Source: Sphaerolaimus hirsutus
Lineage: Eukaryota > Nematoda > Chromadorea > Monhysterida > Sphaerolaimidae
NCBI GenBank assembly: GCA_964036195.1
Contig: OZ038457.1
Location: 27,195,533-27,259,532 of the forward strand
Direction of reading: 5' to 3'
DNA length: 64,000 nt
Of this stretch, positions 9,704 to 35,600 are shown piece by piece. Both the position numbers and the translations under genes were made by a program. The notes below the pieces were generated by a model. It did not search any database, was not told the DNA's origin, and saw only the letters and a program-made list of their open reading frames with translations. Within the stretch, counting starts at the first letter, position 1, and each line of letters starts with the position of its first letter.

Positions 9704-11954
9704 ATGACTTGCGTTCACCGGGTGCCACTCTCAGACCCTGCAAAAAGTCCTGAAAAACGTCAAATGTCGTGCAGAGTGTCAAAAGTCCTGCAAAAATGCT
9801 CTGTAAAGCGTTTGCAACTTTGCAGGGCATTTTGCAAGAGATTTTTACATTTCACATGGCATTCTACAGGGTGTGGAAGTGCCGCAGGGCACCTTCGTGC
9901 TGACTGCAGTAGCATTCAGCTGCATTGCTGGACTGGCCACTGGCTTGGGAGTTGTCATGGTGTGTGGGTCACTTTTTGTGTTGTCTGTAAGCCAATGCTG
10001 TTTCATTTGAGTCTAGATTTGATGGCTGCATAAAGTGGACAAGTAGTTAAGTCAATCGACAAACAAACATACAAGTGACAAATATTTTTAATCACAATTT
10101 TACTTGTCACTTATGAGTTTTCTTTTAACCTGACTTACTGTCAACTTGACTTACCACTTGTCACTATTATCCCCCTTCCTCACTCATTACGTCCAAGATA
10201 ATGCAATAATGACCCATTCTATGCAACCAACATGCTTTCCCCACCATTATCATTCCAGCTGCTGAGTTTTCAGAACAGTACACAAAAATATCAATATGAT
10301 GGTTCATAGTTGCCATTCAGCATTAGTAAGCATATTTTTTAAGAAAAATATTTACATCTCCTTTCATGTCTGCCACAAAACAAAAACATCTGCAATTACT
10401 TATTCAACTGTACTTTGCACAGATAGACATCAACCAACACGGGTGGGGACTGTATCTAGTCCTTCTATCCCTGGTACAAATTCCGCAAATGGATGAGTAA
10501 AAACATTTTGGAAAAGAGAAGTGAAATGGGAAGTGAAGTGAGAAGTAAAATAAAAAGTGCGACTTGAAATGAAAAGTAAAATCATATGAGAAGTGAAATG
10601 AGAAATAAAATCATATATGAGAAGTGAAATGAGGAGTAAAATCAGAAGTGAAAAATGAAATGAGAATCAAAAGTGAGAAGTAAACAGTGTTAAATCTTAA
10701 AAGCAGAGTAAACTGTTCACTTCTCATTTCACTTCTCACTTTTCACTGGTCACTTCTCGTTTGCCTCCTCCTTTCAGTGCTCACTTCTCACCTCTAAACT
10801 GGCTTTTCACTTGTCCACTTGCGGAATTGACCCCTGGTGATCCTGGTGCTGCTGGTGGCAGTGGGTGTGGTGGGGCCAGAGAGAGATGGGCGCACAAAGA
10901 GCAAAAAAGCCATGGCCAAGGCTATGAGAAACACTGCCAAGGCACACACTGGATTACTGAAAGCACCGAGTATTACTGGTGAATAAAAGTTTTGTAGAGA
11001 AATTACAGCATAACCATACCATACCCAACCCAAAATCTGTGACTAATGGTGCCATGGGGCTGGCCCAAAGATGACACTGGTGCTTGACACTCATTTTCCT
11101 GATGTGGCTGCCTAAGAAATGCTGTCAAAGAGCATTGGAGCCATCTTCAATCTCTGCTAAGATTAGGGCTCGAACGATATGACTTTTCAATATCGATATT
11201 TGATATTTTTTCAAAATTTTCGATATCGATATTCGATATTCTATATGAAAAAATGGTCGATATCCGATATTCGATATTCGATACGATATATCGTTTGAAC
11301 CCTAGCTAAGATGGCAAAAGACCAGTGCTAGTAGGGAGTGGGTAGGGGATAACCTCCAAAAAGCTCCAGTTATCTATTTTGGTATTTATGCTCAGGCAAA
11401 CTTTTAGCCTATTGGAGCCTGAATCCCAGCAGAAAATTTTTTCATTTATCTGTTTCTCAACAGGAGTGATTTACTACATATCTATCTGAACACTAGCAAA
11501 TGTCCAAACTTGTGATACCCCAGCACCTGACACCACTTTTCCTGGCACTTATTCATTGGTACCCAACTTCTTCCCACCCAAAATTAAAGGCAGAATGGAT
11601 GAAATCAGTGAGTCAGGCATGAGTGAAATGCCCACCACCACAATCACCCAGCAACAATTTATGCAAAAACCAAGCACTGCGTCAATTTGGTGCACTGAGA
11701 ATTTAAAGCACAGCCCTATCAAAGAATTGAGCAGTTCTGACAACATTGTCAGTAATGACATTGTTGTCAGAAAAGACAATATTGTCAGCATTGAGAAAAA
11801 TGACATTCCTGGGCATACTGATGGCAGTTTTTCTGGCAACATGGGGATCAGATTGACTCCTGATTTGGACGGTGGTCTAATTCTGACCAGTGTGACAAGT
11901 GTGGCAGATGTGGAAAGAATCAGCTTTGATTCCACTACAGATGTGGCATTGTAG
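9704..11954 (+). CDS. Two-membrane-helix protein of unknown function, five exons
   Basis: I do not recognise the family. Proposed exons are 9704-9721, 9888-9986, 10423-10473, 10837-10978 and 11590-11954, giving 224 residues in one frame; the first exon is only six codons and may extend upstream. Exon 2 encodes one hydrophobic segment (about residues 8-38). Exons 3 and 4 together encode a second (about residues 47-68, core LYLVLLSL joined to VILVLLVAV). A basic stretch (KSKKAMAKAMR) and a long polar Ser/Thr/Asp-rich tail follow, probably cytoplasmic. Intron 1 is a complete introner-type element. Intron 3 (10474-10836) is a related element that begins GT but ends CTG, not AG, so its splicing is uncertain. 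The last intron holds a hAT-like element. An AATAAA lies at 12236-12241. Exon 4 could instead end at an in-frame TAA at 10984-10986. Confidence 0.55.
9722..9887 (+). mobile_element. Introner-type element A1, exactly one intron
   Basis: The 166-bp segment begins GTGCCACTCTCAGACCCTG and ends CAGGGTGTGGAAGTGCCG then CAG, so the ends are imperfect inverted repeats. The interior repeats AAATGTC/TGCAAA-like words, as in the other copies. The donor GT is the element's first base pair and the acceptor AG is in the terminal CAG. Removing it joins codons for ...VHR to GTFVL in phase 0. Left edge triplet is CGG, right edge CAG. Confidence 0.75.
10474..10836 (+). mobile_element. Sister introner family element B1 with CTG duplication
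   Basis: Starts GTACAAATTCCGCAAATGG and ends CCACTTGCGGAATTGACCC, then CTG. CTG also precedes it (10471-10473). The interior is AGAAGTGAAATGAGAAGTAAAATC words on the left mirrored by CACTTCTCATTTCACTTCTC on the right. Removing 363 bp joins LYLVLLSL to VILVLLVAV, restoring a membrane helix. Unspliced, the frame meets TAA within ten codons. Confidence 0.7.
11164..11304. mobile_element. hAT-like element made of TCGATAT words
   Basis: 141 bp with ends TAGGGCTCGAACGATAT...ATCGTTTGAACCCTA. GCTAAGAT flanks it exactly on both sides (11156-11163 and 11305-11312). The interior is almost only CGATATTCGATAT words. It lies in the last intron of the membrane-protein gene. Confidence 0.88.
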
Positions 11955-12375
11955 AAATGAGAGGAATGGTAGCCCACACTTATGTGCCTCAATCCTTGGT
12001 AGGGTATATTTTACTTTCTTACTACAGGTGCCTTCATTTTCTACACCATTATGGATATACTTTATTATTATTTATAGGATATACATATGACCCATTATTA
12101 ATACCTAGTTTCTGTTAACATGTCATGATATAACTTCAATTCAGACACCAGCTTGACATATTCCGCACACTTATTATATTTGGTCTGTGAACACTGTGTT
12201 TCTCTTGGTGATGGCTAACACATCAGTGCATTGAGAATAAATTAAGATTGAATGATACATTAATTTTCATTGTAACACATCCTGCTGTCAGTACAGAAAA
12301 TGTACAAAAAAATTTTTTGCCAAAAAAAAACATGATACTCAACCAACCCTCAACTCAACCAACACATCTTCACAG

Positions 12376-12528
12376 CTATCTCACAAGGAAAACCACAATG
12401 AAATTGAGCCAGCTGGGGATGTCAGTGATGGTGGACATGGCAGGCAGAGTGGTGGATTGGGAGCAGCACATGAAACTGCCAGTGTGAGTGACCTGGGCCA
12501 AGCTGTGCTACAGTACTACTACAGATGA
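12376..12528 (+). CDS. Possible extra 3' exon of the two-helix membrane protein gene
   Basis: After a plausible acceptor (TTCACAG) a 50-codon open frame runs to TGA. Its composition looks protein-like (LSHKENHNEIEP, then Gly/Ser-rich, ending LQYYYR), similar in style to the polar tail encoded at 11590-11954. It could be an alternative last exon, spliced in phase 0 from a GT such as the one after residues STTD near 11943. It may equally be chance or old coding sequence. The AATAAA at 12236 lies before it, which argues for a second isoform rather than a constitutive exon. Confidence 0.25.
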   Translation, partial: LSHKENHNEIEPAGDVSDGGHGRQSGGLGAAHETASVSDLGQAVLQYYYR

Positions 12529-13197
12529 TGCTCAAGTGCTACTCAAGTGGTACTCAACTCAGTGCATGAGCAAGTTCACTTTGTTAATTGACAGTGTTTT
12601 TGTTTTGTTTTTGGAGGGTGAGAATTTGGGCGGGTGTTTTTGAAAGAAGTCTGTGACATTTGAAGGGCCCTTCTTGAAAAGGAACAATTTTGAAAATGTC
12701 CTCATTTTTTTCAAAAATATCTCAAATTTCTCAAGTTTTCAGTTTCAGTTCTTTAAGTATTTATTACAAGTTTTAAGTTTACAGAGTCAACTTGCGCAAG
12801 CATTATTAAGCTTGTGATCTCATATTTTGTTGCAATGATGTGATAGATAAGTGATCATTTTGAAATTTATGTTAACTATTCGAATTTTACAATTGAATTC
12901 TAACCTGATTGCATTTATAACATATTTAGTATAGCATGAAAAGAACGCGGTTGACTATGATTTTAAAAAAGCATTTGAAAAATCTCGTGTCAAGACAGCC
13001 AAATTACGACAAATGATAAAACAAGCGAACGCAAATTAAGCAGCTTTTGTGTCACAGCGAAAAAAAGCACCGAAAGTGTGCATAGGCCGAATGCTGGCGC
13101 GAGCGCAAATAAAAGTAACACAGCATTATTATAACATCCACACGGATGAAAGCGATAAAAAAGAAAATAGGGAACTTGAGTTGAAAAGGGGTCGCAA

Positions 13198-16100
13198 ATG
13201 GCAACAAAATGCGATTACAAGGTGGCGCTTTGTGTTCGGCAAGCCGTGAAAGAACATGTGAAATTGCTACAATCAAAATTGCCAGACAACGTTTCCTTGG
13301 ACGTGATGGACTTTGATAAAGTTCTTGCAAATGGTTTGTTTTTCTGTTTGAATGCATTCTGTGTTCTGTAAATACCTTAAGCCTGCATTTATTTGGTGAC
13401 AATTTCGCAAGTGGACCAGTAACAAGAAAATTGGTAAAAAGTCGGCGGACGTCTCACTATATAATTCTAAATGATGAAATAGATCTAAATATACTAAACG
13501 CACACGCCTGAAACACATCACGAAATTTTGGCACCGAGCCAAAAAATAAACGTAAAACGTTGTCCCAGTAAAAAGCTCGGCCTGGATAAAATCAAGCCTG
13601 AACCGAACGGAATCCATCTGTTGAAATTCAAATTTGAGACATAAGAAATCGTACCTAAGGGCAACAAAATTGTATTGTGGAAAGTCCATTATCTTTAAAA
13701 GTAATAATCCAAGTGACGAATAAACATAAGTGACAGGTGAATGTGTAGCCCCAATAATCACCATTAAAATTAACACAAAACTCCTTCGAACGTAGACCAG
13801 TCCTGCAGCAGTTCCGCAACGGTGCTGTATGCAGATTGTGACGTCATAGCTGCAGCTTCCAAGCAAATGCCACAGCTGCAGTTTGTGCAGTGCAGTTGGG
13901 CAGGGGTAAATGTGCTTTTCAAGCCAAAACTTGTGGTAGGGTTGGGGACAGGGATTGCCGGAGTTCTTTTACGTTTTTAAAAAAACGTTGTTTTATTAAA
14001 AAAAACGCAAGCATCGCAACCATTGTTTTAATCTGCAGCCAAATTTTTTTGTAGTTATTCACCAGGTATTTTGTGAATTGTTTGTCTGCAAGAGCGCAAT
14101 TTCATATACAAACTACGATTTGTGGTTGTCAATTTTTTCTGGCATTTTAGGGTGAAGGCTTCCATTTACCCATGCAGTGTGAAATAGCACGCTGTCATAT
14201 GTTATAAATGAGAAATATTATATGAGACATTGCGCACTCATGTGCAAAAATCTTGCAAAATTTGCACCCAGTGGATCACTACCAAAAATACCGCTGCCAA
14301 AATTTTTTGTGTTTGCATTTTTTAAATGTTTTTAAAACACTTAAAAAAATTCCAGCCATCCTTAGGTGGATATTTGTGTAGAACTTGTGTTGCTTTTCAT
14401 TTTAATATGGGTTTGTATCATCTGGAAATCTTAAAACAAACTTTTCCCCTGCAGTTTCCAACTCCGCCCACTTGGAAACTTGCCAGAATGGGTGGCTTTT
14501 TTGGACGACTTATGGCTGAATATGCACTTGGGCATGTGATTGCGAGAGAAAGACATTTTGAAGTTGGCAGAAATGCTCAGAAGGAAAGCTTTTGGTCAGG
14601 AAAAGTTCCATAAAAGTTTCAGCATTTTCAAAAGTAAAATGTTGACAATTTTTCAGGGCAAAGGATTCATTGAGCAACTATCGTGCTTTGTCTGACCTCA
14701 CAATACTGATTGTTGGTTTTGGAGAGATTGGGAAGGATGGTTAGTGTAAATGCTGCTTCAAAACTCCTATAAATTTGTAGAATATAACATGGAGGCAGTC
14801 CTGCAAAATGTTAAGTGTAAAATACCGTATTACCTCGAATTATCCCCCCCTTGAATTAACCCCCCCCCCCTCGAAATACCCCCCCCCCCTAAATTTCGGC
14901 TGAGGAAATAATAAACCCCCCCTCGAAATACCCCCCCCTAAAATTGAGTGTAACGTGAACGTACATGACAAATACCGCAGTTTGTGATCTGTACTAGGGT
15001 TGGAAAAAAATCGATTTTTTTTAACGACCCCGATTTTTTTTTAAAAAGTCGATTTTTTTTAAAAAAAATCGATTTTTTTAATAAAAATCGCTGGGGTTGA
15101 AATTAGCCCCAATTCTCTCTAAAATCGCCTCTAAAGGTAAGAAAAGCCATATATTGATAGGGAGTGCAAACTTATGCTTTCTGTTGTAATACAAGTACTG
15201 TAGAGCTTAAGAAAAGCTTGAAAGTCAGTTATTTTTAAGTTTCAGAGAAATTATCTAGTTATATTTGCAGCGTGGAATACACCTCATCAATCATTTGCGA
15301 TTTTGTTTGCAGAAATTGCACGTTCTTGCTGAGAACAAAGTAAAAATCATCTTGGGAGTGAACATGGATGCATTTGCATGAATGTTTGATGTTAAAACAC
15401 ATAGCATAACTATGAATACTTTCTGAAATGATTCAATGCCTACCTTACATGCTTAAAAGCACACAGAAATGGGTGCTACACCACCAAATTAGTTGAAAAA
15501 GTAATGAAAAAGCAAATGATGGATTGCTTGCATGAAAATGCGCGCTTGCGCGCAAAAAAATTTGCTTTTTACCTAGTGCAAGAGTACCAAAATTTTTCGC
15601 CAGCGATTTTTTTTTTAAAAAATCGGTACGGGTGCTGCGATTTTTTTTTAAAAAAATCGGAATTTTTTTTAAAAAAATCGCTTAAAAAAAATCGCTTGCC
15701 AACCCTAATCTGTACTATGCAGAACACACGTTAACACTGATGATTAAGTGACGTTAGGGAAGGGTTTTTGTGTATATACAGTAATATATGCCTATAAACA
15801 CATATAAATCTATGTGATTGTTCGATTTTTCTACGTCTGCGTATGGGGAATTTCTGAAAATTTCTGGCGAAATAATAGACCCCCCCTCGAATAAACCCCC
15901 CCCCCCCCCTCGAATTATCCCCCCCTCAAATTTTGCTGGCGAAATAATAAACCCCCTGGGGGTATTTCGAGGTAATACGGTACCAAATATATTTAAAATG
16001 TCATAAATTTGTCAAATGCCATGCAAGATGTTGAAAGTTCAGTAAAATCTATCTCTTTTTATGAGCGTTTTATATGACATTTGACACTTTACTTTACACT

Positions 16101-17857: not shown

Positions 17858-17908
17858 TGTGGATGCAGTGATATGCAGAATTATTTGTGATGAATTGATA
17901 CGTTTTGA

Positions 17909-17914
17909 AATAAA
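17909..17914 (+). terminator. Polyadenylation signal of the dehydrogenase gene
   Basis: AATAAA 52 bases after the TGA stop (17855-17857), the expected place for a 3' end signal. Confidence 0.6.
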
Positions 17915-18569: not shown

Positions 18570-19728
18570 ATGGGCAACAAATCGTCATCGTGGAAAAAGC
18601 ACGTTGAGAAGGAGCAAAGACGACGCCAAGAGACCGTGGAAAAACTGCGACAGCGCATATCTGATGTCGAAAGTGAAGAATCGCGCTTTTGGGAACAGAT
18701 CGATCAGTGTGAAAGTGCATTGCAACTGGCCGGTAGGTATAGGGGGTTTTCAGTGAACCCTTTGGGGAGTTGGCACAATGCCAAGAAAAGATATTCTGGT
18801 TTCCTTAGGCAAGTCTCGCACCGCGTGAGATTTCAGACAACTTTCCCAAGTGTCAAGTGTCACTCATTGACCACTTAGTTCGTTTGCCACTTGCAAGTTG
18901 CGGCATTACTCACCACTTACCAACCATTCCCCTTGCCAACTATCAACTTGCAAAATTCACCCCCGTGTAGATCTACTGCGCGCTGGCAAAGTGCCAGTAA
19001 TAGCCGCCCTGCACTTCTACCAAAAAAGGGCACTTAACGCACATGAACAAACGAATTGCGTCACGGAATTTCTGCTTGAAGCTGAATCAAGTGCGATCAG
19101 ATTGGACACTGAATATGAGGGAGTGGAGAAAGATAGGAGACCACCCCTCTTTGGGTTGCCATTCAGTGTGAAGGAACATTTTGAGGTGATATTAAGTGAA
19201 TTTTTGTGACGTTTCTGCCTGGTGGCAGTGCCGCACCCTGTAAAGTAAAGTGTAAAATGTAACACAAATTTGTCAAATGTCAGGCAAAATGTCAAGTGCG
19301 GTGATAAAATCTTTTATTATCTATTTTATTCGCATTTTACATGTCATTTGACACTCCACAGGGTGCGGTACTGCGCCCTGGTACCGAATCCGCAATTGAG
19401 GCGTCTACTTCTAAAAGTCGACAAGTCCAAAATATGGAAATTTCGAGTTAAGCCCGGAAACGTCATCTGGGGCTACTTCCGCACATTTTTATCATTTTCC
19501 ATAAAAATTTTTGACCCAGGGGCGGGGTGCGGGGGGGGGCTGCTGCCCCGCCCCCTCCCGGGGTGAGACCTAAAAGTCACGGAAAATGCAATTTTTTCCA
19601 ATACATTTTTCGAGGTTTCGCGCAATTTCTTCCCCATACATTGTATTTTTAGCGCATCGGTCCCCGTAAACAAATATCCTTGAAAATGAACACAATTTTG
19701 CGATTTTCGCTGCATATGTATGCATATT

Positions 19729-19768
<40 letters not shown>

Positions 19769-22700
19769 GGTTCCTGCGCTGGCTCCAACGCCAATAGCGC
19801 CATGCCGTGGCGCCTTGGTATGGCGCTAGCGCCAAAACACCTTTCTGTCCCTATATAGGGAAAAAAAATTTAGGGGGGGGGGCTGAGCCCCCCACCGCTT
19901 GCCGGCCCCCGTAAACAAGCAGCCCCCCCCCCGCTCAAAAATCCCGGATACGTCCCTGTTTTGACCTCACATGCCCATATGGCAAAGTGCCAAATTTGAC
20001 ATTATTTGGGGAAAATGCAAAAATTTCGGGCAACTAGTCGACAAGTCCATCCTCCTCGTCCTTTTTTATTGCAAAAAATAGCACGAAATGTGATATGTTC
20101 GTCATGGACAGCTACTTCTAAAAGTCGACAAGTCCATAAATTGCCCATAAGGCAGCTTCGTCGTCGCTGGGAACAAAAATGTTCTCTGGCGTAAGATAGC
20201 GACAAGTCCATTTCTCTCCCAAAAACAGTTTTGCTATGGAAATTTATGGACACCCCATTTTTCACATATAGGTTGAGAGCAGGGGCTGAAAATTTGACAC
20301 TTTATTGTCAACATATGGAACATAATGGAAAACATGAGAGAGCCAAATTGGACACGCACCACGGGCCTGGAATTGGATTGGAAACTTGAAATGCGATTTA
20401 CTCAAAATCACATTTTGTGGACTTGTCGACTTTTAGAAGTAGAGGCCTCAATTTGATAATTTGCTTGTTCAGTGTTGAGTAAGTATACAAGTGACAAGTT
20501 AACTAAGTGACAGGTAGATTTCAAAATCAAAATACTGCTCATCCTATCATATTCGAATCCAAGCTGAATCCAACTTAGCTCCCCTTAAAACGTGAAATTC
20601 TTTAAAAAAAAGTTTTTATAAATTTTGCAGCTGCGGAATCACATATCAACATTCGGATACGCACATCGGCTGGCTGAAAATGCGGTCGATTCGGATGCTG
20701 TCATGGTTGAGATGCTTCGGCGGTCTGGAGCCATTCCCTTTGTCAGGACAAACATACCTATGGTAAGTGTGTGCAGGGACATACGCAGGATTTTTGAGCG
20801 GGGGGGGGGCGGATTGTATACGGAGCCCGGCGAATGGGGGGGGCGGTGCCCCCCCCCTAAATTTTGGCCCCATAGTAAAGGAATGGAGCCATGGCGCTGG
20901 CGCCATTTGTAGGCGCCAGCGCCATGGCAGTATTGGCGTTGGCATTGGCGCCAACGTCTACTATTTATATAGGTGACTAGGCATTTATACCTATATATAT
21001 ATCGTACTTGGACCATGTTGGGCGCTTTTGTAGTGCTGTAAGACTCCGTATTAATTAATGGGAGGGGTATTTGCGCGCTTGCACGCAAAAAAATTTCCAA
21101 GTGCCTGCAAAATCGGTTTACAAAAGTGCCATTTCTGGCACATTTTTATGTCCGGCCCCGGAACGGGGGGGGGCGGCCGCCCCCCCCCCCCCCCCTGCGT
21201 ACGTCCTTGAGTGTGTGTACCATGGCTTAGTTCAACTTCAATTGAAATGCAAGGGGATTGTTAGCGTTTTATTTTATTCGCTTACTCGCGTATCTGATGC
21301 CTTGCGTTCTAATTGGATTTGGCCCCAAAATTGCAACATCATAAATATTTAAATATGCCGTATTTTTGCTTGGATAATTTCTCCCTTGAAAAATTCACCC
21401 CCTGTTAGACGAGTGTGAAAAAATTCCATTTGAATAATCCTACCTTTTGGCATATGATCCATTCTTGTTGCCCAATTTGAAAAGAATGACTTGTTATTCC
21501 GTTAATAAATCATATTTCGAGTTGATAGAAACATGCTCGAAAATTGTAACGAAATAGAAGTTCCCCCTTGAATAGCTTCTCTACAAAAACGTCTGGCGAA
21601 AAAAATAATTCACCATGAGAATTAAATATCGACTACACAACACACTAATCTCCCCCAAATTCAGGGAATGGTCTCGTTCAACTGCTCCAACCCAATCTAC
21701 GGTGTGAGCACGCACCCCCAAAACAAAGATCGCACTTGCGGGGGGTCCTCCGGGGGAGAGGGCGCCATCTTGGCATTGAAGGCGGCACCTTTTGGGTCGG
21801 TTTGGCATTTTTTGAGCAAAAATTTCTTGAGCATTTAAGTAAATAATTACATTTTTCGATTCACGGAAATTTATTGTTAAAATGCAGGATTGGTACAGAT
21901 GGCGGGGGGAGTATTCGACTCCCAGCGGCTTTTTGCGGTGTGGCCGGCTTGAAAGTGGGTTTTTTTATTAGACTGGAAAGTGAATGTGCAAACCTCTATC
22001 TTGTAAATAATGGCAAATGTCATAGAATGTGTTTCAAACAAAAGAAATCGAACTGTTGTTCTGATTTAGGGTTCAAACGGGATTGACTTTTCGGGATCGG
22101 GCTCGGGATCGGGATTCACTTTTTGAGATTTCGGGATCGGGATTGGGGTTTCGGGATCGGGATCGGGATTGGTATTTTGAGATTTCGGGATCGGGATCGG
22201 GATTGGCCGGGATTGGGGTCACGGGATCGTGATTGGGATTGGCATTTTTTCGGGATCGGGATTGGGGTCTAGGGATAGAGATTTTCGTTACTGTTCTGGC
22301 ATTCACAGTTGTTCATAAAGGTCTCAAAACACTGTTGGATGCCAGAAAAGTGACATAAAATGGACGCTGGGGGTTTGCGTTCACATTTTTGCACGCAAAA
22401 ATGTCATTTTTCACTTTTTAATATTTTCACTATTTTTTCCGGGATCGGGATCCCGGACTTGGGAGATTCTCGGGATCGGGATTTGAAAGTTTTCGGGATC
22501 GGGATCGGGATTGGTATTTTTGGATTTCGGGATCGGGATTGGGGTTTCGGGATCGGGATCAGGACTGCTAAATCCCGGAATTTCACGGGATCCGGGATCG
22601 GGATCGGGATCCCGTTTGAACCCTATTCTGAATTACATTTTTTCTGTTCAAACTCTACATTAAGGCAATTTGTAAAAACTGGTTGTCATTTTTTTATTTA

Positions 22701-25700
22701 ACTAATTGAAATTTGTTCAATTTGAATTTGAATCTCACACATTGCCCGCAGCCAACGAGCACGAGGGTTTCTCAAAGGGGGGTGCCAGCCAATTTGCCGG
22801 GGGTGGTAGTGTTGGGCATCACCTGCGGCCCCATGGCTCCACACGCGGACACTTTGGCTGAGGTTATGAGGTAAATCATGTGTTTCGGTTGGTACCCGTA
22901 GCACACCTTGTTACTAGGGATGGAAACCGTTTAAAAAACCGCTTTTTAAAGGGGTAAATTTAGACATTTACGGTCTTTTTGGAAAAAGCAAAAATAACGC
23001 TTTTATTTTAAAAAATAGGGCCGTTAAAAAGCCGCTTTTGTCCATCTATAGTTGTTACTGTTGTGCAGGTTTAAGGTTGTTGTGAAATATCTCGTTTTTG
23101 GCGAAATTATCACTTTTAAAAGTAATTTTTCACGTCACAGAGCCACTTTGAGTCCGGCTGCGATGACAATGGACCCTTATTATCTGTGTGTGCCATTCCG
23201 CGATGAAGTTTGTTGTCTTTTTATTCAGGGGTATATGAGTTTGGGCGTAGGGTTGTAATTATATCGTATTATATGGTATTTATTCGTGACGAATCTATTG
23301 ATCAGACTGAACGTTATGCAGGCTGTTACTGTATTTTGATGAATAAAGACTGGTGGAAAATTGTGCACCAGTTCACTGTACTGAAAGCGACGTAATTTAG
23401 AAATGTCGAATGTCAAACATTTTGAGAGAAAAAGCCTCGTCAAGTATCGATAATTGGACAAACACTTCGCTTCAAACCCAATTGTAGCTAGGTATATACG
23501 CTTCAGACTGTTTAAGGCAGAAAAAGTTTTCAGGTGCCAATTGCACATGATAACACACGATAACGCTTGTTCCACATGATCCACAGTGATAGCCCCTCTC
23601 CTGCCTGACCCGTGCTTTCATATCACCCCATTGCCCCCCAGATGTACGCAAGCGCGGAACCCCTTCGCATCGGCTACTACCACTCCGACGGCTTCTTCCA
23701 GTGCACCCCCGCCGTGCAGAGGGCCGTGGCTCTGGCAAAGGACACCCTACAGGCGGAGGGCCACCAGTTGGGTAAGTGCGCTTGGAAATGTTGCAAATAA
23801 TATTTGGGGAATGTAGGTACATTTTGGAGGTGTCATGCTTGGATAGGATAGCTGGAGATAATGGCATTGTGCCAATGGAGCAGTGCCGCGAGTGAACAAT
23901 AGCGGACTGCATGGATAGATTTCAAAGGACATTGCCGTCGCCGCATTAAAACCCTTTTGGTGACTAGAGCCCAGCCGCCACTTGTGTCCAACGCTATTAG
24001 AGGGGCACGGGTTCGATTCCCGCCTGTGGCAGTGCAAATTTTGAACTCTTACTTTAGTGATAAGTAAAGTAAATAGAAGCGTGGTAAGCGAAGTGACAAG
24101 TGTCAAAAAAGTTCCACCCAACGCAGTGCGGTGGGACTTCCCGGACACGGAGCGAGCGCTGCGTCTGTTCTTGAACATGTTCATGCCCGCCGCCGGCCAG
24201 GGCATAAAAACTCTCTTTGATAAAGATGGTTAGTATACCATTGTACACGGTGCAAGGTCGCCATGATTTCGATCGTTTTGGTGGTGTAGCTGAAGATATG
24301 GCTCTCGTAAAAAAATCGTGCCGAACTTGATGTGGAAGCAGTTTAGTCAAAAATGGGCATTTGCAAATGTCGGAATTTTCCATTTGTAAAATGAACATAC
24401 TTAAAATACAAATCAATTCAGGTAATTTCTACGAGCCACTTCTGGCGGAGCACCTTCTGCTTGTGCGACTGCCATTTTGGTTGAAACACTTTATTGGCTT
24501 GGTGCTCAAGTGGTCCAGATGTCCCTTTTTTGCCAGGATTTCCAAGGCACTTTTATGGATGAGGTATGTTTATATACCGGGCGGACTTGATATCTGCACT
24601 CGCGTATATTTATGTCTCATGCTGGATGTGTACCAATGTTAATTGAATTGCGATTTGTGTAAAAAAAGATGAAAAATAACATTGTTGTGAATACGTTTAC
24701 ATTGACATTATAACAGCAATGGATTTTTTCAACTAATTTTGATCCTATCATCTTTTCAAAAGCAGCGTTTGTATTTAATCAATCATTTACATCAATTTTT
24801 CAAGTCGAATCTCTAATCCCGTTTATCACACCCCGAAGCACCGATGCAAACACTCTCCGTGCCGTGTATCAAGAATGTCTGGAATTTCGCCGCGAAATGA
24901 CCGACAATTGGCTGGAGCGCTCCATCGACGCCGTTTTGACGCCGGCGTATTTTGGCGTGGCGCCAAGTCACACTTTGCCGGACAGGTGCCACTCACAGAC
25001 CCTGGAAAATGCCCTGGGAAATGTTAAATGTCATGCAGATGTTCAAAAGTCATGTAAAATGCCCTGTAAATGGCAAATGAGTTGCCATTTTCCAGGGCGT
25101 TTAAACGACTTTAGACACTTTGCATGACATTTGACATGTTACGAGAGCATTTTACAGGGTCTGGTAGTGTCCCCAGGTGTTCTCTGTCTGCCGCATACAG
25201 TCCAGTGTGGAATGCGTTGGACTTCGCTGCTGGCACAGTGCCAGTTACCAGAGTTACTGAACTCGATGAGCAGCAGGTGGGGAATTGTTGCCAGTTTGCG
25301 TGTTTTTGTCTATTCACTTGGCTGCACATGTCTGATTTCAGCAAGTATAATTCTCTGCCTTGAAAATCGGTAATAATGTTTGAACATATTCAAATCCGTC
25401 CTGGATAGGCCTCTGCACAAGTAGTTTTATAACGTTAGCACTTTTTGATGAGCGCAGGCCAATAGCTAGTAGTTCATACAGTCAAAAATGTTCACAATTA
25501 ATCTACCTGCATAATCATGCGTGGTGGCGCAGATGAGCGGCTACCCGTCCAGTGACGTGTGGTACCGGCTCGCCAAGAAGGACCAATCAAAAGGTTCGTC
25601 ACGCTCACAATTTAACTATTTTTACTTTGTTGAAACATTTTTGCCATCTTTTTTAAAGAAATCTGAATTTTCAGTCTCTAATTTCTGCAGTTTTCAGTAA

Positions 25701-28700: not shown

Positions 28701-29434
28701 CGTACTACATAAATACATTTACGTTTCCTCCAGAAAAAAATACCAGTACTCATTTACTCGTTTACTTTTTGAAAGTACGCGAGTACAGAAAACGTATGTT
28801 TGCTTTTACACTTTTTTAAATGCCAGTATTATTATAACAACTCTTATTTCTGCATTCTACCATGAAATAATAAGCTGTGATATGCTCCTGTAGTATGAAA
28901 TATCCAACCAATGTACATGTAAACTTGGGTATATTGTTTTTCTGTTGTTCAGCCGATTATTACTCGATACCCGGTTATTTTATTACCCGGAACCGAAATT
29001 TCGATCATTTTAGAACCGAAAGAACCGAACCGGAACCGAGTTTAAGAACCGAACCGAGAACCGGAACCGAAAATTTTTAGGAACCGAGAACCGATACCCG
29101 AACCGAAATCTTTTGGAACCGAGAACCGAGAACCGGAACCGAAAATTTTGAAATTCCCAACCCTACTCTTAACTTTTCCACTTGCGGAACTGGCCCCTGG
29201 TGTAATTCCATTGAGTTCACCAAAACGTCCGTAATCTGGATTTTCCAGTTGTCCGCTGATTAACTGTCATCTAAGACTGTTAGCCACAACAATTCCTGTA
29301 AAGTCCATTTTTCAGGTACGGTGGGTTTGCCGGTGGCCGTGCAGTGTGTCGCCCTACCGAATCACGAGGAAACTTGTCTCAGGATAATGACTTTACTGCA
29401 AAACAAATTGCCACTGAAACGAGTTGAGAATTGA
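18570..29434 (+). CDS. FAAH: Fatty acid amide hydrolase (amidase signature family)
   Basis: Family role: serine hydrolase that cleaves fatty acid amides such as anandamide and oleamide at intracellular membranes. Exons: 18570-18732, 18971-19185, 20631-20762, 21665-21795, 21888-21954, 22752-22870, 23141-23207, 23642-23771, 24127-24228, 24422-24563, 24839-24985, 25177-25276, 25533-25593, 29316-29434. All junctions are GT-AG and in phase; 1695 nt gives 564 residues (human FAAH has 579). The amidase triad is intact: Lys122 in FSVKEHFE, Ser198 in CGGSSGGEG, Ser222 in GTDGGGSIRLP; the Ser-Ser spacing of 24 equals that of the human enzyme. Other matches are CSNPIYG, PLRIGYYHSD, LTPAYF, NALDFAAGTVPVT and VGLPVAVQCVALP. 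The first 50 residues are charged and probably coiled-coil, with no clear membrane helix, unlike vertebrate FAAH1. Intron 11 is an introner-type element. It starts about 710 bp after the dehydrogenase stop, same strand. Confidence 0.95.
19222..19380 (+). mobile_element. Introner-family element A4 inside FAAH intron 2
   Basis: Starts GTGGCAGTGCCGCACCCTG and ends CAGGGTGCGGTACTGCGCC, with CTG directly before (19219-19221) and after (19378-19380). That is a perfect 3-bp CTG duplication. It lies inside a larger intron, so it is not itself an intron. Confidence 0.75.
19517..19958. mobile_element. hAT-like element starting CAGGGGCGGGG
   Basis: Ends CAGGGGCGGGGTGCGG...GGATACGTCCCTG with a perfect TTTTGACC duplication (19509-19516, 19959-19966). 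It contains long G and C runs and a TA microsatellite (about 19731-19764). Confidence 0.85.
19731..19764. repeat. TA dinucleotide microsatellite
   Basis: About 17 TA units inside the hAT-like element 19517-19958. Confidence 0.95.
20774..21209. mobile_element. hAT-like element at a FAAH 5' splice site
   Basis: Ends CAGGGACATACGCAGG...CCTGCGTACGTCCTTG with a perfect AGTGTGTG duplication. The left duplication overlaps the donor of FAAH exon 3 (GTAAGTGTGTG, donor at 20763), so the element starts 11 bases into the intron. GGCGCCAGCGCCATGG words lie in the middle. Confidence 0.87.
22067..22625. mobile_element. hAT-like element with GGGATC/GGGATTGG word arrays
   Basis: Ends TAGGGTTCAAACGGGAT...ATCCCGTTTGAACCCTA, flanked by TTCTGATT and TTCTGAAT (7 of 8). 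Both arms are GGGATCGGGATCGGGATTGG arrays in direct rather than mirrored orientation. In FAAH intron 5. Confidence 0.82.
22915..23050. mobile_element. Short hAT-like element in FAAH intron 6
   Basis: TAGGGATGGAAACCG left, GTCCATCTATA right, flanked by CTTGTTAC and GTTGTTAC (7 of 8). Interior AAAAAACCGC/GCGG words. Confidence 0.7.
24008..24022 (+). other. tRNA-like T-arm / B-box, probable SINE fragment
   Basis: CGGGTTCGATTCCCG forms a perfect T-stem and loop and matches the RNA polymerase III B box. The flanking GCCTGTGGC has no convincing pairing partner upstream and no anticodon arm was found. It is most likely a tRNA-derived repeat fragment in FAAH intron 8 rather than a tRNA gene. Confidence 0.4.
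24986..25176 (+). mobile_element. Introner-type element A2, exactly intron 11 of FAAH
   Basis: The 191-bp intron starts GTGCCACTCACAGACCCTG, passes through AAATGCCCTG and AAATGTCATGCA words, and ends with their inverted counterparts, then GGGTCTGGTAGTGTCCC and CAG. CAG also precedes the element (exon ...GACAG), so a 3-bp CAG duplication fits. The split codon (phase 2) encodes Arg between HTLPD and CSLSAAY of the amidase. The intron is certain from the protein; its identity as an element comes from the shared ends with A1 and A3. Confidence 0.88.
25793..26418. repeat. Foldback element in FAAH intron 13
   Basis: Near-perfect inverted arms of about 300 bp: GCCAGATTTAATTCTCCCTACAG on the left against its complement ending TATCTGGCCCC on the right. 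The centre has the CAGGTGGTCACTTTTTTAGTG loop. No coding frame runs through it. Confidence 0.8.
26641..26892. repeat. Foldback with AAACACCTTCCCGGTCACG ends
   Basis: AAACACCTTCCCGGTCACGT on the left is mirrored by ACGTGACCGGGAAGGTGTTT on the right. The interior GAAGCTGAAACTTGGGGGAG is also mirrored. A partial copy of the left arm reappears at 63739-63850. Confidence 0.8.
27425..29165. mobile_element. Large hAT-like element with GAACCG word arrays
   Basis: TAGGGTTGGGGAACCGAACC left, AATTCCCAACCCTA right, with TACTTAAC and CTCTTAAC flanks (6 of 8). The terminal 150 bp on each side are GAACCGAGAACCGGAACC words. The interior has GTACCGATCTACA repeats and a palindrome (28417-28597). It is embedded in a TTAAGAGACAAGAGTAAAG-rich B-type repeat in FAAH intron 13. 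Confidence 0.75.
28417..28597. repeat. Palindrome inside the GAACCG element
   Basis: AGCGACATTACACCTTACAATG on the left is the complement of CATTGTAAGGTGTAATGTCGCT on the right. The arms meet at AAATTGCTTTGATAAAT. Confidence 0.8.
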
Positions 29435-29769
29435 GTTTGATTAAGCGATTTGAGTGATGGATATTTATTATTTAAGAGGTACTTACGATATTTTGAGCTG
29501 TTAATTACTGGAAGTGTATTTTAGTCATAGGGTTATGGTATATTTATACTCAAGTCCCGGTGAGATGACACTGCACACTCGGTTATTTATGTTTCACGTT
29601 GTAAGCGTGCCAATGATAATTTGAGGATGTTTTTGAAAATCTGAAGACACTTATTGTAATGAAAATGTTAATGAAAAATGTTATAACAGCACTGAATTTT
29701 TATTGCCATTTTATGAAACTCACGTGTTAATGTCGTTGGCACGCTTCACTGGAGGCAGTCGCTGGGTTA

Positions 29770-30030
29770 CCGTATTACCTCGAAATACCCCCCCCCCCTC
29801 GAAATACCTCCTCCCCCTCAAAATGGGCACTATGAATTTGTGGTCCGGAAAATGCATAACAAACGTTCAAAACACTTACTGTGTTACGTTAGAACATATT
29901 TTTTACCATCTACATCCTTATATAAGGCTGTAAAAACTTATAAATGGTGGTTATTGTTGCATTTTTCACGTTTTTCAAAATTTTCACTCTGAAAAAATAA
30001 ACCACCGGGGGGTAATTCGAGGAAATACGG
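29770..30030. mobile_element. TA-flanked CCGTATT element downstream of FAAH
   Basis: TA-CCGTATTACCTCGAAATACC left and GGAAATACGG-TA right; 261 bp, C/G runs near both ends. Confidence 0.75.
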
Positions 30031-30557
30031 TATATGAAATTGACTGTTCGACCCAAGTCCGTTTGGCTGTTCTAGTTCCGAATTTTATACAATATTCTGT
30101 TAATTCTACGCGGTGTGTTGTAAAAGATAGAAAGTTGTTTTGAAACACTTTCACTTGATGGTAGTTTGTGATATGAAAATCCGTCATGGCATATTTGGTC
30201 TCTTCGCATCAGATTCTTATCTTAGCCGTGTGTGACTGCGTTATTTTCATGGAATATTTCCGATGTCATTTTTCTTTGGTTTTCAAATTATTGGATGTGT
30301 TTTCGCGGATTTTCGATTTTCCACCACAGCTGTTATATCATCCTTTTTATTTATATTGAATGATTTCTTTAGCACTCAGTAATTTTATAATTACCCAACT
30401 GTTTGCGCTCACTAAACACGGATAAACCCGAAAATGATAAATCCACTATTCAGAATTCAAACCCTTGCAACTCAACGCTACAACCTTTCCAGCCCACACA
30501 CCACGAACCACAAATTTCATCCTGAAAACCTCCCGCTAGACATCTAATCCCAACACA

Positions 30558-30725
30558 ATGGGTCAAAACTTCAGCGGCGGCGCCAAGTTGTCCTGCGATC
30601 TGCACCCAAAAGAGGAAGGCACGGGCACTGGGCCGGTGATCACTGGGGGACCTGTGGGCGTCACGGGGACGAGTGTGGGTCAAACTGGGGAACCTATAGG
30701 TGTCCATGGGGAGGCACTTGCGTGA
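30558..30725 (+). CDS. Small Gly/Thr-rich reading frame, 55 residues, function unknown
   Basis: A single open frame starts at ATG (MGQNFSGGAKL) and ends at TGA. It is GC-richer than its surroundings and has a regular Gly/Val/Thr pattern (TGGPVGVTGTSVGQTGEPIG) that looks like an imperfect repeat. MGQNFS resembles an N-myristoylation signal (inference only). The roughly 130 bases before the ATG are a C/A-rich leader-like sequence, unlike the AT-rich flanks. It has no recognised homologue and could be a small gene, a first or last exon, or chance. Confidence 0.35.
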   Translation: MGQNFSGGAKLSCDLHPKEEGTGTGPVITGGPVGVTGTSVGQTGEPIGVHGEALA

Positions 30726-30981
30726 TTTTGATGCTCGCGGAGATTTTTTTGTTTTTTTTTGTAAATGTGGTTTTGTGATTTATTTGTGTCTTGTTTTTTG
30801 GTGTCTCTGTCGCTATGGTTGAACTCTACCTAGTAACTCTTAGGTGTAGTTTTCTTTTATCTAATTATTTAAAACGCGTGACTGGACGCTCATTTGGTCA
30901 CTTTTATTAATATTTCTGTGATCTTAGACCATTCAACTGAAATAAAAGTATCTTGACATGACGTTCCAAAGGGGTGACATG

Positions 30982-31861
30982 TAGTGATGGAATGGCGCCA
31001 TGGCGCTGGCGCCTTTTGAGGGCGCCAAAGGGCGCCGCGCCATGGCGCCATTGGCGCTTGGCGCCCTTTTTCTGTGGCGCCCTTGGCGCCTGGCGCCCAC
31101 TTTCTGAAAGGCGCCATGGCGCCCTTGGCGCTTGGCGCCCATTTTCCGTGGCTCCCTTGGCGCCTGGCGCCCTGCTTTAAAAGGGCGCCAAAATGGCGCC
31201 AGCAGGATTTCAAGGTGAGCGCTGCGAAAACGATTAAAAGAAAAAAGCGTGTCCGTGGATAATCGAAATTCGCTGGAAAAATACAGTGCCAGTGGATTCA
31301 AATCGTTCGTCCAATGGTTTTCCAGACACTTCGGCTGGAATGATGGGCCGTGCAACCTACAAACTCGTCAATCAACGGATTCAAATCGTTTGAATTCCGT
31401 TTTTATCCACTTCAAAGAACATCCATTGCAATAATCTATTTGAGGTGAATGCTTTGCGACAATTTTCATTGCGTTTGAATTAAAATTCACGCGTGAGTGA
31501 ATATGATTTTATGCAAAAATTTTGTTGCTAGTTTCGTTTTTGTTGATTACATGCTAGAGAACATAATTAAAGAAGTGATTGTGTGAAATATAGTGTTGGA
31601 GAACCATTTTTAGCACACGCAGGGTATCATACACACTTATTTATCCTGGCGCCCTTGGCGCCTGGCGCCCTAATTTTCAAATGGCGCTTGGCGCCCTCTT
31701 TCCGTGGCGCCTGGCGCCCACTTTCCGAATGGCGCCATGGCGCCCTTGGCGCCTGGCGCCCTTTTTCTGTGGCGCCATTGGCGCTTGGCGCCCACTTTTC
31801 GAATGGCGCCATGGCGCCATTGGCGCCTGGCGCCCTTTTTTTCGGCGCTTTTCCATCACTA
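30982..31861. mobile_element. hAT-like element made of GGCGCC words
   Basis: Ends TAGTGATGGAATGGCGCC...GGCGCTTTTCCATCACTA with a perfect GTGACATG duplication. Both arms are dense in GGCGCCATGGCGCC and TTGGCGCCTGGCGCC words. The centre (31215-31640) is ordinary AT-rich sequence with a 61-codon open frame of no recognised origin. Confidence 0.88.
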
Positions 31862-31933
31862 GTGACATGACAGACAGCGCATTGATTTTTAGATGGAAGG
31901 GGGCAAAAATGGACCAATGCAAATAATAATGCC

Positions 31934-32257
31934 CAGAGTTGTTAGAATTACTGAACTTGTTTAAAAGTATATGTAAATGTAAAGTTTTTTTTGCTCACCA
32001 CAAAGTATAGAAAACGTAAAATACTTTTTTACTCGTACGTACGCGTAAATGTGGGTACTTTTTTGTGTAGTCACTTTATAGGTAAATGTCCCAAATTGAC
32101 TTTTCTGAAATACATTTTCCGTACGCCTATGCTTTGAAAATGTACGGGTACAAGTGCGTACGGTATTTGAAAAAAAGTATATGTGAATGTATTTACCGCG
32201 TACTCGCGTACGCGTATTTTTCGAGTAAACGTATTTACGTACCTTTTAACAACTTTG
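31934..32257. mobile_element. hAT-like element with CAGAGTTGTT ends
   Basis: CAGAGTTGTTAGAATTACTG left, CTTTTAACAACTTTG right, perfect ATAATGCC duplication. Words GTACGCGTA / ACGTATTTACG fill the ends. Lies just upstream of the Ser/Lys-rich gene. Confidence 0.83.
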
Positions 32258-32626
32258 ATAATGCCTTTGTTAAACCTGACAGCATCAGAGACAATAGTTG
32301 CCATTGTTCTTGTCCAGTCACATGCTGCATACATAATCTGCTTGGCGGCTGTATGTACACTTTGCACTGAAATCTACCATATACCATCGGAATAGTGAAA
32401 CTAGTTTTATATTTTTCATCGCTATGCATTTGTTTGCTACGGCAAATAAAATCATGCCCGGAATTTATCACGTGACTTTGTTCAACAAATTATGGTAACA
32501 TTCCGCCTGCCCAGCGCGTTTCGAACAAAAATTGTAAAGACTATAAATATCATTTAAATTTACAAGAAAGTAAAGCTACATTTTCTGCAGAAAAAGAAAC
32601 ATTTTCTCAATTTTTATACCATAAAA

Positions 32627-35600
32627 ATGTCCGAGAACGATCCATTTGGGAAGAGCATCTTGGTTGTGCACAGCGATCCGGAAGAGGCTGCAGACAAGTA
32701 CAGTGAAAATCCGAATAGTGGAACAAATTATGACAAAAATAAACATGATAGTGAATCCTTGAGTCAAAGCGTGGGCAAGTTGATAAGATGATGTTGTTTT
32801 TGTGGAATAGATTTGACAATTTGGGCATTTGCTGGGGCTAATTCCACCAGCAGAAGTTCCATGAAGTTTTTCAGTTACGTAAGTGAAGCGAAGCTACAAG
32901 TGGTAAGTCGCGTGTATTTCAAAAGTGAAAAAATAAATAGGTAAGTAAATTTCAAAAACTTGACGTTTATTACTGTTGTCACTTGACCACTCGTGGAATT
33001 GGCACCAGGAAGAGGAACAGACTTGTCGTTAAAAATTTGTCCTTTACTCGGTCCAACGCATGTTTTCTGAAGGAAGTACCCATTATGACATCATCATGGT
33101 TAATAAATAAAAAAGTATGCAAAACTATTTTCCTGGAAAAACATTTTTCGTATTTCTTGTATAGGTATTTTTCTTTTTGAAATATTTTTTTGTGCAAGTG
33201 TGCGCAAACTGCCTCCTTGCGCGTCATCCACTAAGACATAAGTAATTTTTGGCACATACTGTGTGGTCTGCCGAGTATACCAATTATCAAATGACCACTT
33301 GCCAAATTCATCTATGCTCACAGACACATATTCAAAGAAAAATGGCATATTTCTTGCCAAGGAAAGGAATGGTTCAAACGACAACAAAAGAGCCAATTCC
33401 AGAGACAATCACAGCAGGTGCCACTCTCATACCCTGTAAAATGCCCTGGAAAATGTAAACTGACAAGTCATGTAAAATCTAATTTGTTTTTAACTAGTTT
33501 TTGACATGTTTCATGACGTTTACCTAACTTTAGACACTTTGTATGACATTTTACATTTTCAAGTGCACATTACATGGTCTGGGACTGCCCCCAGGTCTAG
33601 GAAGCCACCACAGAAAAAGCAGCCAATCGTAGTTGAAACATCAGAATCAGAAGATGATTATGCAAAGGAAATCATTAAAAAAGATAAAATGGGCATTTTG
33701 GGTGTGTCACATTTCACAACACCTTGAGGTCTTTTCTTGTGAATCCATTAGTCTTTCAAAACTTGCTTAAATTTGTGCTTCCAGGTGCTTATACTGACAG
33801 CTCCAGCAGTTCTAGTGGCTCTGAAGACATGAAACCAATGAAATCCAAACACTCCAAGAAGACAAAAACGAAAAAGTCAAAAGACAGGAGACATTCATCT
33901 TCTGATGATGGTTAGATCATGCATAAATCAATCATGGAATAAATTTAAAAAAGCATGACATATTTTTGACATCAAACATTTCAATTCCAGTAAACTCAAA
34001 CTCTGATAGTGAAAAAGAAGACAAAACAAAGAGTAAGAAACAGAAGGGTTCAAGCAATTCAAAGCCATCAAAACGGCCTGATTCAAAAGATGACTCTAAC
34101 TCAAAATCTGCAACGAAAAGCGAGCAAAATGACAACCAGGATGAAGATGATAAGTACAAATTCTGTTCAAAAAGTTTTTTTCCTGCACTTGATTCAATGA
34201 ATTATAAATCAAAGTCTACTCTGAAGTCGATCTGAATCATGTGTCCAAAAATGTGCAATAAAAAAATAAAAATGAAATGGTGAATCTAGCAGAACAAAAG
34301 CAATTCACTTTTGGATAGGGTTCAAACGGGATTCCGATCCCGATCATGAATCCTGAGAAATTTCGGGATTTTGTGGTCCCGATCCCGAACCCGAAATCTC
34401 AAAAAACTAATCCCGATCCTGATCTAGAAACTTTTGAAACAACAATCCCAAACCCGAAAATTTTTACTCAATCCCGATCCCGGCAAATTTGCCAACTTTT
34501 TTAAAATAACATTTTTGTACTAAGAAATGTGACTAGGAACCTCCAACGTCCAATCTGACACTTTTCCGGCATTCGTGTGTGTTTTACACCTATTTTTGCA
34601 GTAAATTAGAGAAAATCCTTCAATATGAGAATTTTTTCAATGATCCGAATCCCGATCCTGAAAAATTGCCAATCCCGGTCGCGATCCCGATCCCGAAACA
34701 CCAATCCCAATCCCGATCCCGAAATCTCAAAAGACCAATCCCGATCCCGATCCCAAAAGCCCAATCCCGATCCTGATCCCGAAATCTCAAAAAGCCAATC
34801 CCGATCCCGATCCCGATCCTGAAAAGTCAATCCCGTTTGAACCCTACCTTTGGATACAATATTTAATGCTTAGACAGCAGTCGCATAAAGATGAACATTC
34901 ACTTTTTGAACAGACTTGGTATAAAGATGAAGAAATGCCAAAATTCAAAGCTGACCTGGAAGAAATTCATGAACTTATAGCACTTTTAAAAAGGAAGAAA
35001 AAGGAAGCACTTGAGAAAGACAAGTTTGTCAACTAGGTTTTGTCAAACATGTAACAAATAATGGTTGACTTGTTTTAACATTCAGGTATAAAAATGCACA
35101 ACATCTAAAGGATATGATTGATAGCTTGCAAAATTCTGAAAAGCAACTGAATGGGTTTATGTATGAAACAAAGGTGGCTGTTGAGAAGGAAGATTACAAG
35201 AGAGCACATGAAATGAAAAAGATATATAAGTAATGCTTGATTCATTCTCCAAAATGGTTCTCCTACAAAAAGATCCCTCAAACATCAGCTTACTTTTTTT
35301 CACAGGAAAACATACAAAGGTATACCTGAACAACTACCTCTTTTATCAAAATATCTGGACAAACAGCAGGTTGTTTTGTAAAATTTATACAGAGTTTGAA
35401 AAATATGCCATATTTACACATGATACCATGGCACATGGCACCCTCTTTCCGTGGTAACTTACCTAGACATCCAGTGCAGGGACGTATACAGGATTTTTGA
35501 GCGGGGGGGGGGGGCTGCTTGTTTACGGGGGCCGGCGAGGGGGGGGGCTCAGCCTCCCCCTAAAATTTTAGCTACATAGTGGCGGAATGGCGCCCTGGCA

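What the first reader, a model, noticed from the sequence alone, without database searches (positions are those of the whole stretch)
9722..33594. One transposon-like family forms three whole introns in three neighbouring genes
Introns 9722-9887, 24986-25176 and 33418-33594 have the same first 19 bases (GTGCCACTC-CAGACCCTG type), the same inverted end (CAGGGTCTGG-GACTGCCCC, then CAG) and the same interior words, yet lie in unrelated proteins at phases 0, 2 and 2. Intron boundaries equal element boundaries to the base. That is the signature of introners, DNA elements that create introns on insertion. The FAAH case is anchored by a conserved enzyme, so the intron call is not circular.
Basis: partly seen in the sequence, partly recalled or inferred. 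Interest (0 to 1): 0.93.

Follow-up and report, generated by a model that had tools for sequence, protein, structure and literature searches.

The report
Palindromic transposon that becomes introns
A short mirror-image transposon in an animal genome, probably a nematode's, has inserted into the coding parts of several unrelated genes, and its ends together with the three bases it duplicates look exactly like splice sites, so each such insertion appears to have become a new intron.

Summary
The three introns belong to one ~189-bp near-palindromic element with many copies in a 348-Mb genome. Of 63 complete copies examined, 48 have the same 3-bp flank on both sides, mostly CAG or CTG. The intron is the element plus one flank copy: GT from the left end, AG from the duplicated CAG. 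Removing exactly that much rejoins conserved proteins: Spt16, VMAT, haem peroxidase and GRK2 align gaplessly across the junction, FAAH with no gap near it; M13 and COMM domains cross it by Pfam only, near cut-off. Eleven antisense control frames gave no match at cut-off. The preferred target, ACCWGGT, is the centre of the published Harbinger3_DR target, and CWG is the published NuwaI duplication: an introner from a Harbinger/NuwaI-type MITE. Its arms match at 90 of 94 pairs; three of the four mismatches lie in the first seven, at the splice sites. A moulting-cycle gene suggests a nematode. No RNA, related species, transposase or genome-wide count was available. Copies at CTG or CAT lack AG at the boundary; how they are spliced, if at all, is open.

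The parts
24986..25173 (+). Introner copy (188 bp) in the FAAH gene; GT donor = first two bases
   Evidence: FAAH homology across the junction
25174..25176 (+). Right copy of the CAG target duplication = last 3 bases of the intron (AG acceptor); left copy CAG is 24983-24985
24840..24985 (+). FAAH coding exon upstream of the introner (part given to the search)
25177..25276 (+). FAAH coding exon downstream of the introner
9722..9884 (+). Introner copy, about 18% diverged from consensus; intron 9722-9887, phase 0; flanks CGG / CAG
   Evidence: gene not anchored by homology
33418..33591 (+). Introner copy, about 23% diverged; intron 33418-33594, phase 2; flanks CAG / CAG
   Evidence: open frame across the junction, no Pfam match
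59068..59253 (-). Fourth complete copy; flanks CTG / CAG; does not look coding
19222..19377 (+). Divergent relative (left end GTGGCAGTGCCGC) with CTG on both sides, close after an exon-like stretch resembling an amidase N-terminus
   Evidence: the amidase resemblance is recalled, not searched
56863..57032 (+). Copy truncated at its left end
62884..62976 (-). Right-arm fragment of a related element next to a short-period repeat

Best explanation
A non-autonomous DNA transposon (MITE) of the CWG-duplicating PIF/Harbinger-like (NuwaI) type acts as an introner. A transposase, not found here, cuts ACCWGGT targets and duplicates the central CWG. When the element lands in the coding strand's CAG orientation, the transcript reads ...CAG|GTGCCA...CTGCCCC CAG|G...: GT from the left terminal repeat, a C-rich tract from the right end, AG from the duplicated CAG. 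Removing element plus one CAG restores the original codons at any phase. Shown from sequence: the duplication, the target preference, the inverted repeats, and seamless junctions in conserved genes. Inferred: splicing by the spliceosome, the transposase family, and that the introns are gains in this lineage. A further inference is that the ancestral ends were symmetric GGG... as in NuwaI, and that a G-to-T change at position 2 of one arm made the donor.
For: Across the junction, solved structures align without a gap to Spt16 (106 residues), VMAT (74), haem peroxidase (74) and GRK2 (64); FAAH has no gap at the junction and one single-residue gap 12 residues away. Peptidase_M13 (34.1 bits, cut-off 32) and COMM (22.4, exactly its cut-off) also cross it. 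Both GRK2 copies (chromosome and a 57-kb contig) keep AG although the triplet differs, TAG and GAG. Same triplet on both sides in 48 of 63 copies (the right side could slide 3 bases to find it). Target: C before CWG in 36 of 60, G after in 38 of 60, both in 23 of 60, against 5.8% of 10,350 background CWG sites, p about 1e-13. Published Harbinger3_DR target AAACACCWGGTCTTT (PMC3016246, passage); published NuwaI duplication CWG and GGG ends (PMC4482050, passages and section 7). Arms complementary at 90 of 94 pairs, 3 of the 4 mismatches in the first 7 pairs.
Against: No RNA. No transposase or autonomous copy found. 13 of 63 copies are CTG/CTG and 3 are CAT/CAT; some lie in open, coding-looking sense frames (L039, L049, L056, L037:2306, L024, L036), where the boundary gives TG or AT, not AG. 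The excess of long sense frames in AG-ending over CTG-ending copies is not significant (p 0.12 and 0.18). M13 and COMM rest on Pfam near the cut-off: the PDB search found no M13 or COMM relative and a longer COMM protein scored 21.2, below cut-off. Far more sense frames (49) than antisense frames (11) were searched. An internal GTAAAA donor 18 bases in would also keep frame, and AGs lie 18-31 bases before the end in most copies. Copies were chosen by similarity to the FAAH copy or by lying near such copies, so the sample is not random.
Confidence: 0.88

Rival explanations
1. The elements are ordinary MITEs that inserted later into introns that already existed.
For: MITEs often sit in introns; several copies here do not look coding.
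Against: In the five genes aligned residue by residue not one base of non-element intron is left: coding homology reaches both element ends, and over all copies the two flanks together form a transposon-like target site.
Confidence: 0.04
2. The elements are removed from DNA, not RNA: perfect excision, as PIF/Harbinger elements usually do, or programmed elimination in the soma, leaving one target copy.
For: PIF/Harbinger excision usually removes element plus one 3-bp duplication copy (PMC2836001, passage). It would also explain coding-looking CTG/CTG and CAT/CAT copies.
Against: AG is kept in all seven anchored copies even where the triplet has changed: GRK2 TAG and GAG, Spt16 left CTG but right CAG. 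DNA excision would not need AG. The arm asymmetry sits at the splice-site positions.
Confidence: 0.05
3. The introns spread as RNA (reverse splicing), as proposed for fungal introner-like elements, and the repeat structure is secondary.
For: Fungal introners lack duplications and inverted repeats and have been read this way (PMC9860276, section 4).
Against: Inverted repeats, a 3-bp duplication and a palindromic Harbinger-like target, and copies at CTG that do not look coding, point to DNA transposition.
Confidence: 0.03

Closest known systems
Introners of Chrysochromulina sp. (Gozashti et al. 2022, PMC9860276, section 4 with Fig. 2C legend read)
   Same: Element carries the 5' splice site and takes the 3' splice site from its insertion site, with a target duplication.
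   Different: There 4-bp duplications and no inverted repeats; here 3-bp CWG and a nearly perfect inverted repeat over the whole length, in an animal.
Introner elements of Amoebophrya (PMC7789003, passages read)
   Same: Repeated introns with inverted repeats and 3-5 nt direct repeats at the exon boundaries, predicted hairpins.
   Different: Those are defined among introns with non-canonical splice sites; here the anchored copies all end GT...AG. Protist, not animal.
NuwaI transposons (PHIS superfamily, PMC4482050, passages and section 7 read)
   Same: CWG duplication; ends usually starting GGG (our right arm reads GGGG); reported from animals only.
   Different: Here 189 bp, left end GTG; introns are not mentioned in the passages read; the listed hosts (fish, one beetle, one crustacean, one mollusc, one anthozoan) include no nematode.
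Harbinger3_DR of zebrafish (PMC3016246, passage read)
   Same: Target AAACACCWGGTCTTT contains ACCWGGT, the preference measured here.
   Different: A reconstructed fish transposon that is active in vertebrate cells; not described as intron-making in what was read.

Membership tests
Introner (intron-creating transposable element) | Families of similar introns whose similarity reaches both splice boundaries | tested here: met
   Five junctions aligned residue by residue in unrelated genes, two more by Pfam
Introner (intron-creating transposable element) | Signatures of DNA transposition (TSD and TIR) | tested here: met
   48 of 63 copies with equal triplets; 90 of 94 arm pairs complementary
Introner (intron-creating transposable element) | Spliced in RNA | not testable with these tools
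Introner (intron-creating transposable element) | Intron absent at the site in relatives or paralogues | not tested
   The search for empty paralogue sites did not complete; the genome tool states that G000 has no relatives held
NuwaI / CWG-type PIF-Harbinger MITE | 3-bp CWG target duplication | tested here: met
   CAG/CAG 30 and CTG/CTG 13 of 63
NuwaI / CWG-type PIF-Harbinger MITE | TIR usually starting GGG | tested here: inconclusive
   Right arm consensus GGGG, left arm GTG; T on one arm and G on the other in 33 of 39 elements, G on both in 3
NuwaI / CWG-type PIF-Harbinger MITE | Palindromic ACCWGGT-centred target (Harbinger3_DR) | tested here: met
   published target
NuwaI / CWG-type PIF-Harbinger MITE | DDE transposase plus Myb/SANT protein on an autonomous copy with the same ends | not tested
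   No search was made; the whole-genome search tool answered only

The most novel reading that the evidence does not exclude
A NuwaI/Harbinger-type transposon whose natural target, ACCWGGT, already contains the CAG|GT proto-splice site became an intron factory in a nematode, possibly through one G-to-T change in one terminal repeat. It has made thousands to tens of thousands of introns, each a nearly perfect 90-bp RNA hairpin when young, and may be the largest introner load in an animal. Copies at CTG are spliced through nearby in-frame AGs, or through an AG made by mutating the duplicated triplet (CTG to CAG, as in Spt16).
Probability: 0.45. Interest if true: 0.86.

Novelty: new variant of a known kind. 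Interest (0 to 1): 0.78.

Why it matters
The 2022 survey (PMC9860276) found introners in only two animal groups. Here is a clear animal case, probably a nematode, with the transposon type readable from its target and duplication, so the path from transposition to new intron can be written base by base. It gives a concrete reason for the old proto-splice-site observation: the preferred target contains CAG|GT. It also suggests a minimal change, one base at one end, that could turn an ordinary MITE into an introner. Because 29 of 63 copies differ from the consensus by only 3-7%, insertion polymorphism, splicing efficiency and selection on new introns could probably be measured in natural populations.

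Tried and rejected
Association test: the sense-frame excess for AG-ending against CTG-ending copies by open frames alone was not significant (Mann-Whitney p 0.12; Fisher p 0.18; 33 vs 15 of 56 copies). I therefore rest the case on homology-anchored junctions. Sub-cut-off spanning matches (MAM, ASC, EGF, HYR) are not counted as anchors. The FAT4-like cadherin match stops one residue before its junction and the second cadherin match lies wholly downstream; neither is counted. PDB searches meant to check M13 and COMM residue by residue found no relative of either (best E 0.1 and 0.59, unrelated proteins). Homology for CTG/CTG copies: L039 gave no PDB match; L056 gave weak K2P-channel matches (best E 0.0019, 21.8 bits) that begin at or a few residues before the junction; L037:2306 gave nothing of substance. 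The GBF1-like look of L039 is recalled, not shown. The protein database held no match for the spliced COMM protein. Exact-word scans of viral contigs (24 bases) and prokaryote genomes (22 bases) found nothing. Rfam found nothing in the window. Non-canonical GT-TG splicing was considered. The eight coding-looking CTG or CAT copies I inspected (L039, L049, L056, L037:2306, L050:4777, L033:9287, L024, L036) each have an in-frame AG between 30 bases before and 12 after the boundary, but several other copies do too and coding-looking L034:3309 has none, so this is only a possibility. In L024 the ShK match lies downstream of the junction.
Full report
What is there. With related copies from the rest of the genome the consensus is 189 bp, GTGCCACTCCCAGACCCTGTAAAATG...CATTTTACAGGGTCTGGGACTGCCCC. 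It is almost a perfect palindrome: 90 of 94 arm pairs are complementary, and the mismatched pairs are 2/188, 4/186, 7/183 and one in the loop. Three mismatches all falling in the first seven of 93 pairs has a chance of about 3e-4 if they fell at random. The window is part of a 348-Mb, 762-contig genome, and the FAAH copy alone found 3422 first-look candidates (40 were scored, giving 81 matches, since a palindrome matches on both strands). Four complete copies in the 64-kb window, if typical, would mean about 20,000 genome-wide, with a Poisson range from four counts of roughly 6,000 to 56,000. That is arithmetic from one window, not a count.

Insertion anatomy. In 63 complete copies the flanking triplets are CAG/CAG 30, CTG/CTG 13, CAT/CAT 3, CCG/CCG 1, TTG/TTG 1, and unequal in 15, among them CTG/CAG 3 (the right boundary could slide up to 3 bases to find the same triplet, which favours equality). 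The 63 include three redundant copies (L021, L026, L054) and four divergent relatives. Dropping the three redundant ones, 60 rejoined sites show C before CWG in 36 and G after it in 38, with A and T next outward at 0.42 and 0.43; both C and G occur in 23 of 60 against 5.8% of 10,350 background CWG sites. The target is ACCWGGT. A review gives the Harbinger3_DR target as AAACACCWGGTCTTT (PMC3016246, passage), and the PHIS paper gives NuwaI duplications as CWG with ends usually starting GGG (PMC4482050, passages and section 7). So target and duplication both point to a CWG-type Harbinger/NuwaI MITE. No transposase search was possible, because the whole-genome tool answered only.

Are they introns? 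I removed the element plus one triplet and translated the rejoined flanks. Forty-nine sense frames from 48 of the 63 copies went to Pfam; L019 was sent twice because its first frame used a wrong boundary, and for two others (L038, L050:518) the right boundary is uncertain. The 15 copies not sent are the three redundant ones, the four divergent relatives and eight with short or no open frame. Seven junctions are crossed by a match at or above a curated cut-off or by a solved structure. Five were seen residue by residue: Spt16, 106 residues without a gap (M24 56.5 bits, cut-off 23); vesicular amine transporter, 74 without a gap (MFS 60.9, cut-off 33.4); haem peroxidase, 74 without a gap (123.2, cut-off 25); GRK2, 64 without a gap (no Pfam match); and FAAH, no gap at the junction and one single-residue gap 12 residues upstream (Pfam Amidase 18.7 bits is below its cut-off of 27). 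Two rest on Pfam alone: Peptidase_M13 (34.1, cut-off 32) and COMM (22.4, exactly at its cut-off; 21.2, below it, with a longer protein); PDB searches found no relative for either. Four more crossing matches are below cut-off (MAM, ASC, EGF, HYR). Eleven antisense frames gave no match at cut-off and one weak sub-cut-off match (and one frame). Sub-cut-off matches that look like noise also appeared among sense frames (DUF7787, Frag1, DUF423, DUF6264, Ribosomal_60s, CTX_RstB). Because coding homology reaches both element ends with nothing left over, these are whole introns, not MITEs inside older introns.

How it works. In all seven anchored copies the element is in sense and the intron ends in AG; sense frames were searched far more than antisense ones, so the strand part of this is not a fair test. 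Six have CAG on the left. The seventh, Spt16, has CTG on the left and CAG on the right; the left TG belongs to a Cys codon that is also Cys in solved Spt16, so the retained copy is probably the original and the removed one has changed to CAG. In GRK2 the chromosome copy ends TAG and the copy on a 57-kb contig ends GAG: the triplet has changed but AG has stayed. The left end reads GT in 57 of 60 copies, and the right end CCCC exactly in 37 of 60. I infer that an ancestor with symmetric GGG ends gave CAG|GGGG...CCCC|CAG, which already has a usable acceptor, and that a T at position 2 of one arm made the donor. In 39 duplication-flanked elements found by end pattern, 33 have T on one arm and G on the other, 2 have T on both, 3 have G on both (one of these 710 bp long) and one is T with C. 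This remains an inference. The RNA of the FAAH intron folds at -101.6 kcal/mol against -51.8 for shuffles, z -11.2, bringing the splice sites together. Double, pair-keeping changes between the arms number 78 against 28.5 in shuffles (maximum 46 of 300); these concentrate at a few positions, as subfamilies would, so they may reflect arm conversion in source copies more than selection in introns.

What does not fit yet. Copies with CTG or CAT on the right have no AG at the boundary, yet some sit in coding-looking sense frames (L039, L049, L056, L037:2306 with CTG; L024, L036 with CAT). None of these has a homology match at cut-off crossing the junction; L056 has weak potassium-channel matches around it. 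The eight I inspected each have some in-frame AG from 30 bases before to 12 after the boundary, for example 9 bases before the end in the GGGAGTG type or 18 before it in two copies with one C fewer. Other copies have such AGs too, so this proves little. By open frames alone, AG copies do not differ significantly from CTG copies. DNA-level excision would explain these copies but not the keeping of AG. Frame alone cannot tell the GTGCC donor from the GTAAAA donor 18 bases later; the gapless alignments favour the first.

Which organism. One copy (L031) lies beside exons of which one matches the Moulting_cycle family (22.2 bits, cut-off 22) and others carry LSP-type repeats like MLT-10 (recalled). 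I take it as a nematode, at about 0.8. The species could not be identified.

Known or new. Introners and the use of a target base as a splice site are known: the 2022 survey shows a family carrying its 5' site and co-opting its 3' site (Chrysochromulina), and reports introners in only two animal groups (PMC9860276, section 4 and passages; copepods are named). Amoebophrya introners share inverted repeats and short direct repeats (PMC7789003, passages). In my library searches I saw no listing that reports introners in a nematode or from a NuwaI/CWG Harbinger element. Only listings and the passages named were read; one listed fungal paper holding both words (PMC8476143) was not opened, one search listed 40 of 67 papers, subscription papers are missing from the library, and a 2025 survey of horizontal introner transfer that I recall did not appear. 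I file it as a new variant of a known kind.

Noticed in passing
window 4657-5228: Inverted pair of 192-nt arms, 97% complementary, 188 nt apart, next to a second pair 5343-5711 (96%): other foldback-like elements.
   Followed up: no
window 14883, 15919, 29969, 36283, 41888, 42037, 43473, 46680, 49140, 49731, 51869, 55810, 60475, 61698, 61980 (starts): Many copies of a TACCGTATTTCCTCGAAATACCCCCC-type repeat in both orientations, another high-copy short family.
   Followed up: no
window 20167-20450, 45465-45748, 53262-53545 (and inverted at 9009-9618): Dispersed repeat family: direct copies 74-80% alike over 284 bp, inverted copies up to 94%; the inverted stretch ends about 100 bases upstream of the 9722 introner.
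   Followed up: no
L037 837, 2306 and 4600: Three family copies within about 4 kb; 4600 crosses an M13 peptidase match and 837 lies upstream of a weak M13 start, so one gene may have gained several introns.
   Followed up: partly
L019 and L054 (GRK2, chromosome and 57-kb contig): Two copies of one locus, both with the introner (188 of 195 intron bases equal, flanks 145 and 146 of 150), acceptor TAG in one and GAG in the other.
   Followed up: yes
L019 228-937: 710-bp CAG-flanked element with symmetric GGGCCAGTTCC ends, perhaps a longer relative without the GT end.
   Followed up: no
L009, L021, L026 (C7 23.27-23.31 Mb): Three neighbouring paralogues, 94-96% alike, all carrying the introner at the same site: insertion before duplication.
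   Followed up: partly
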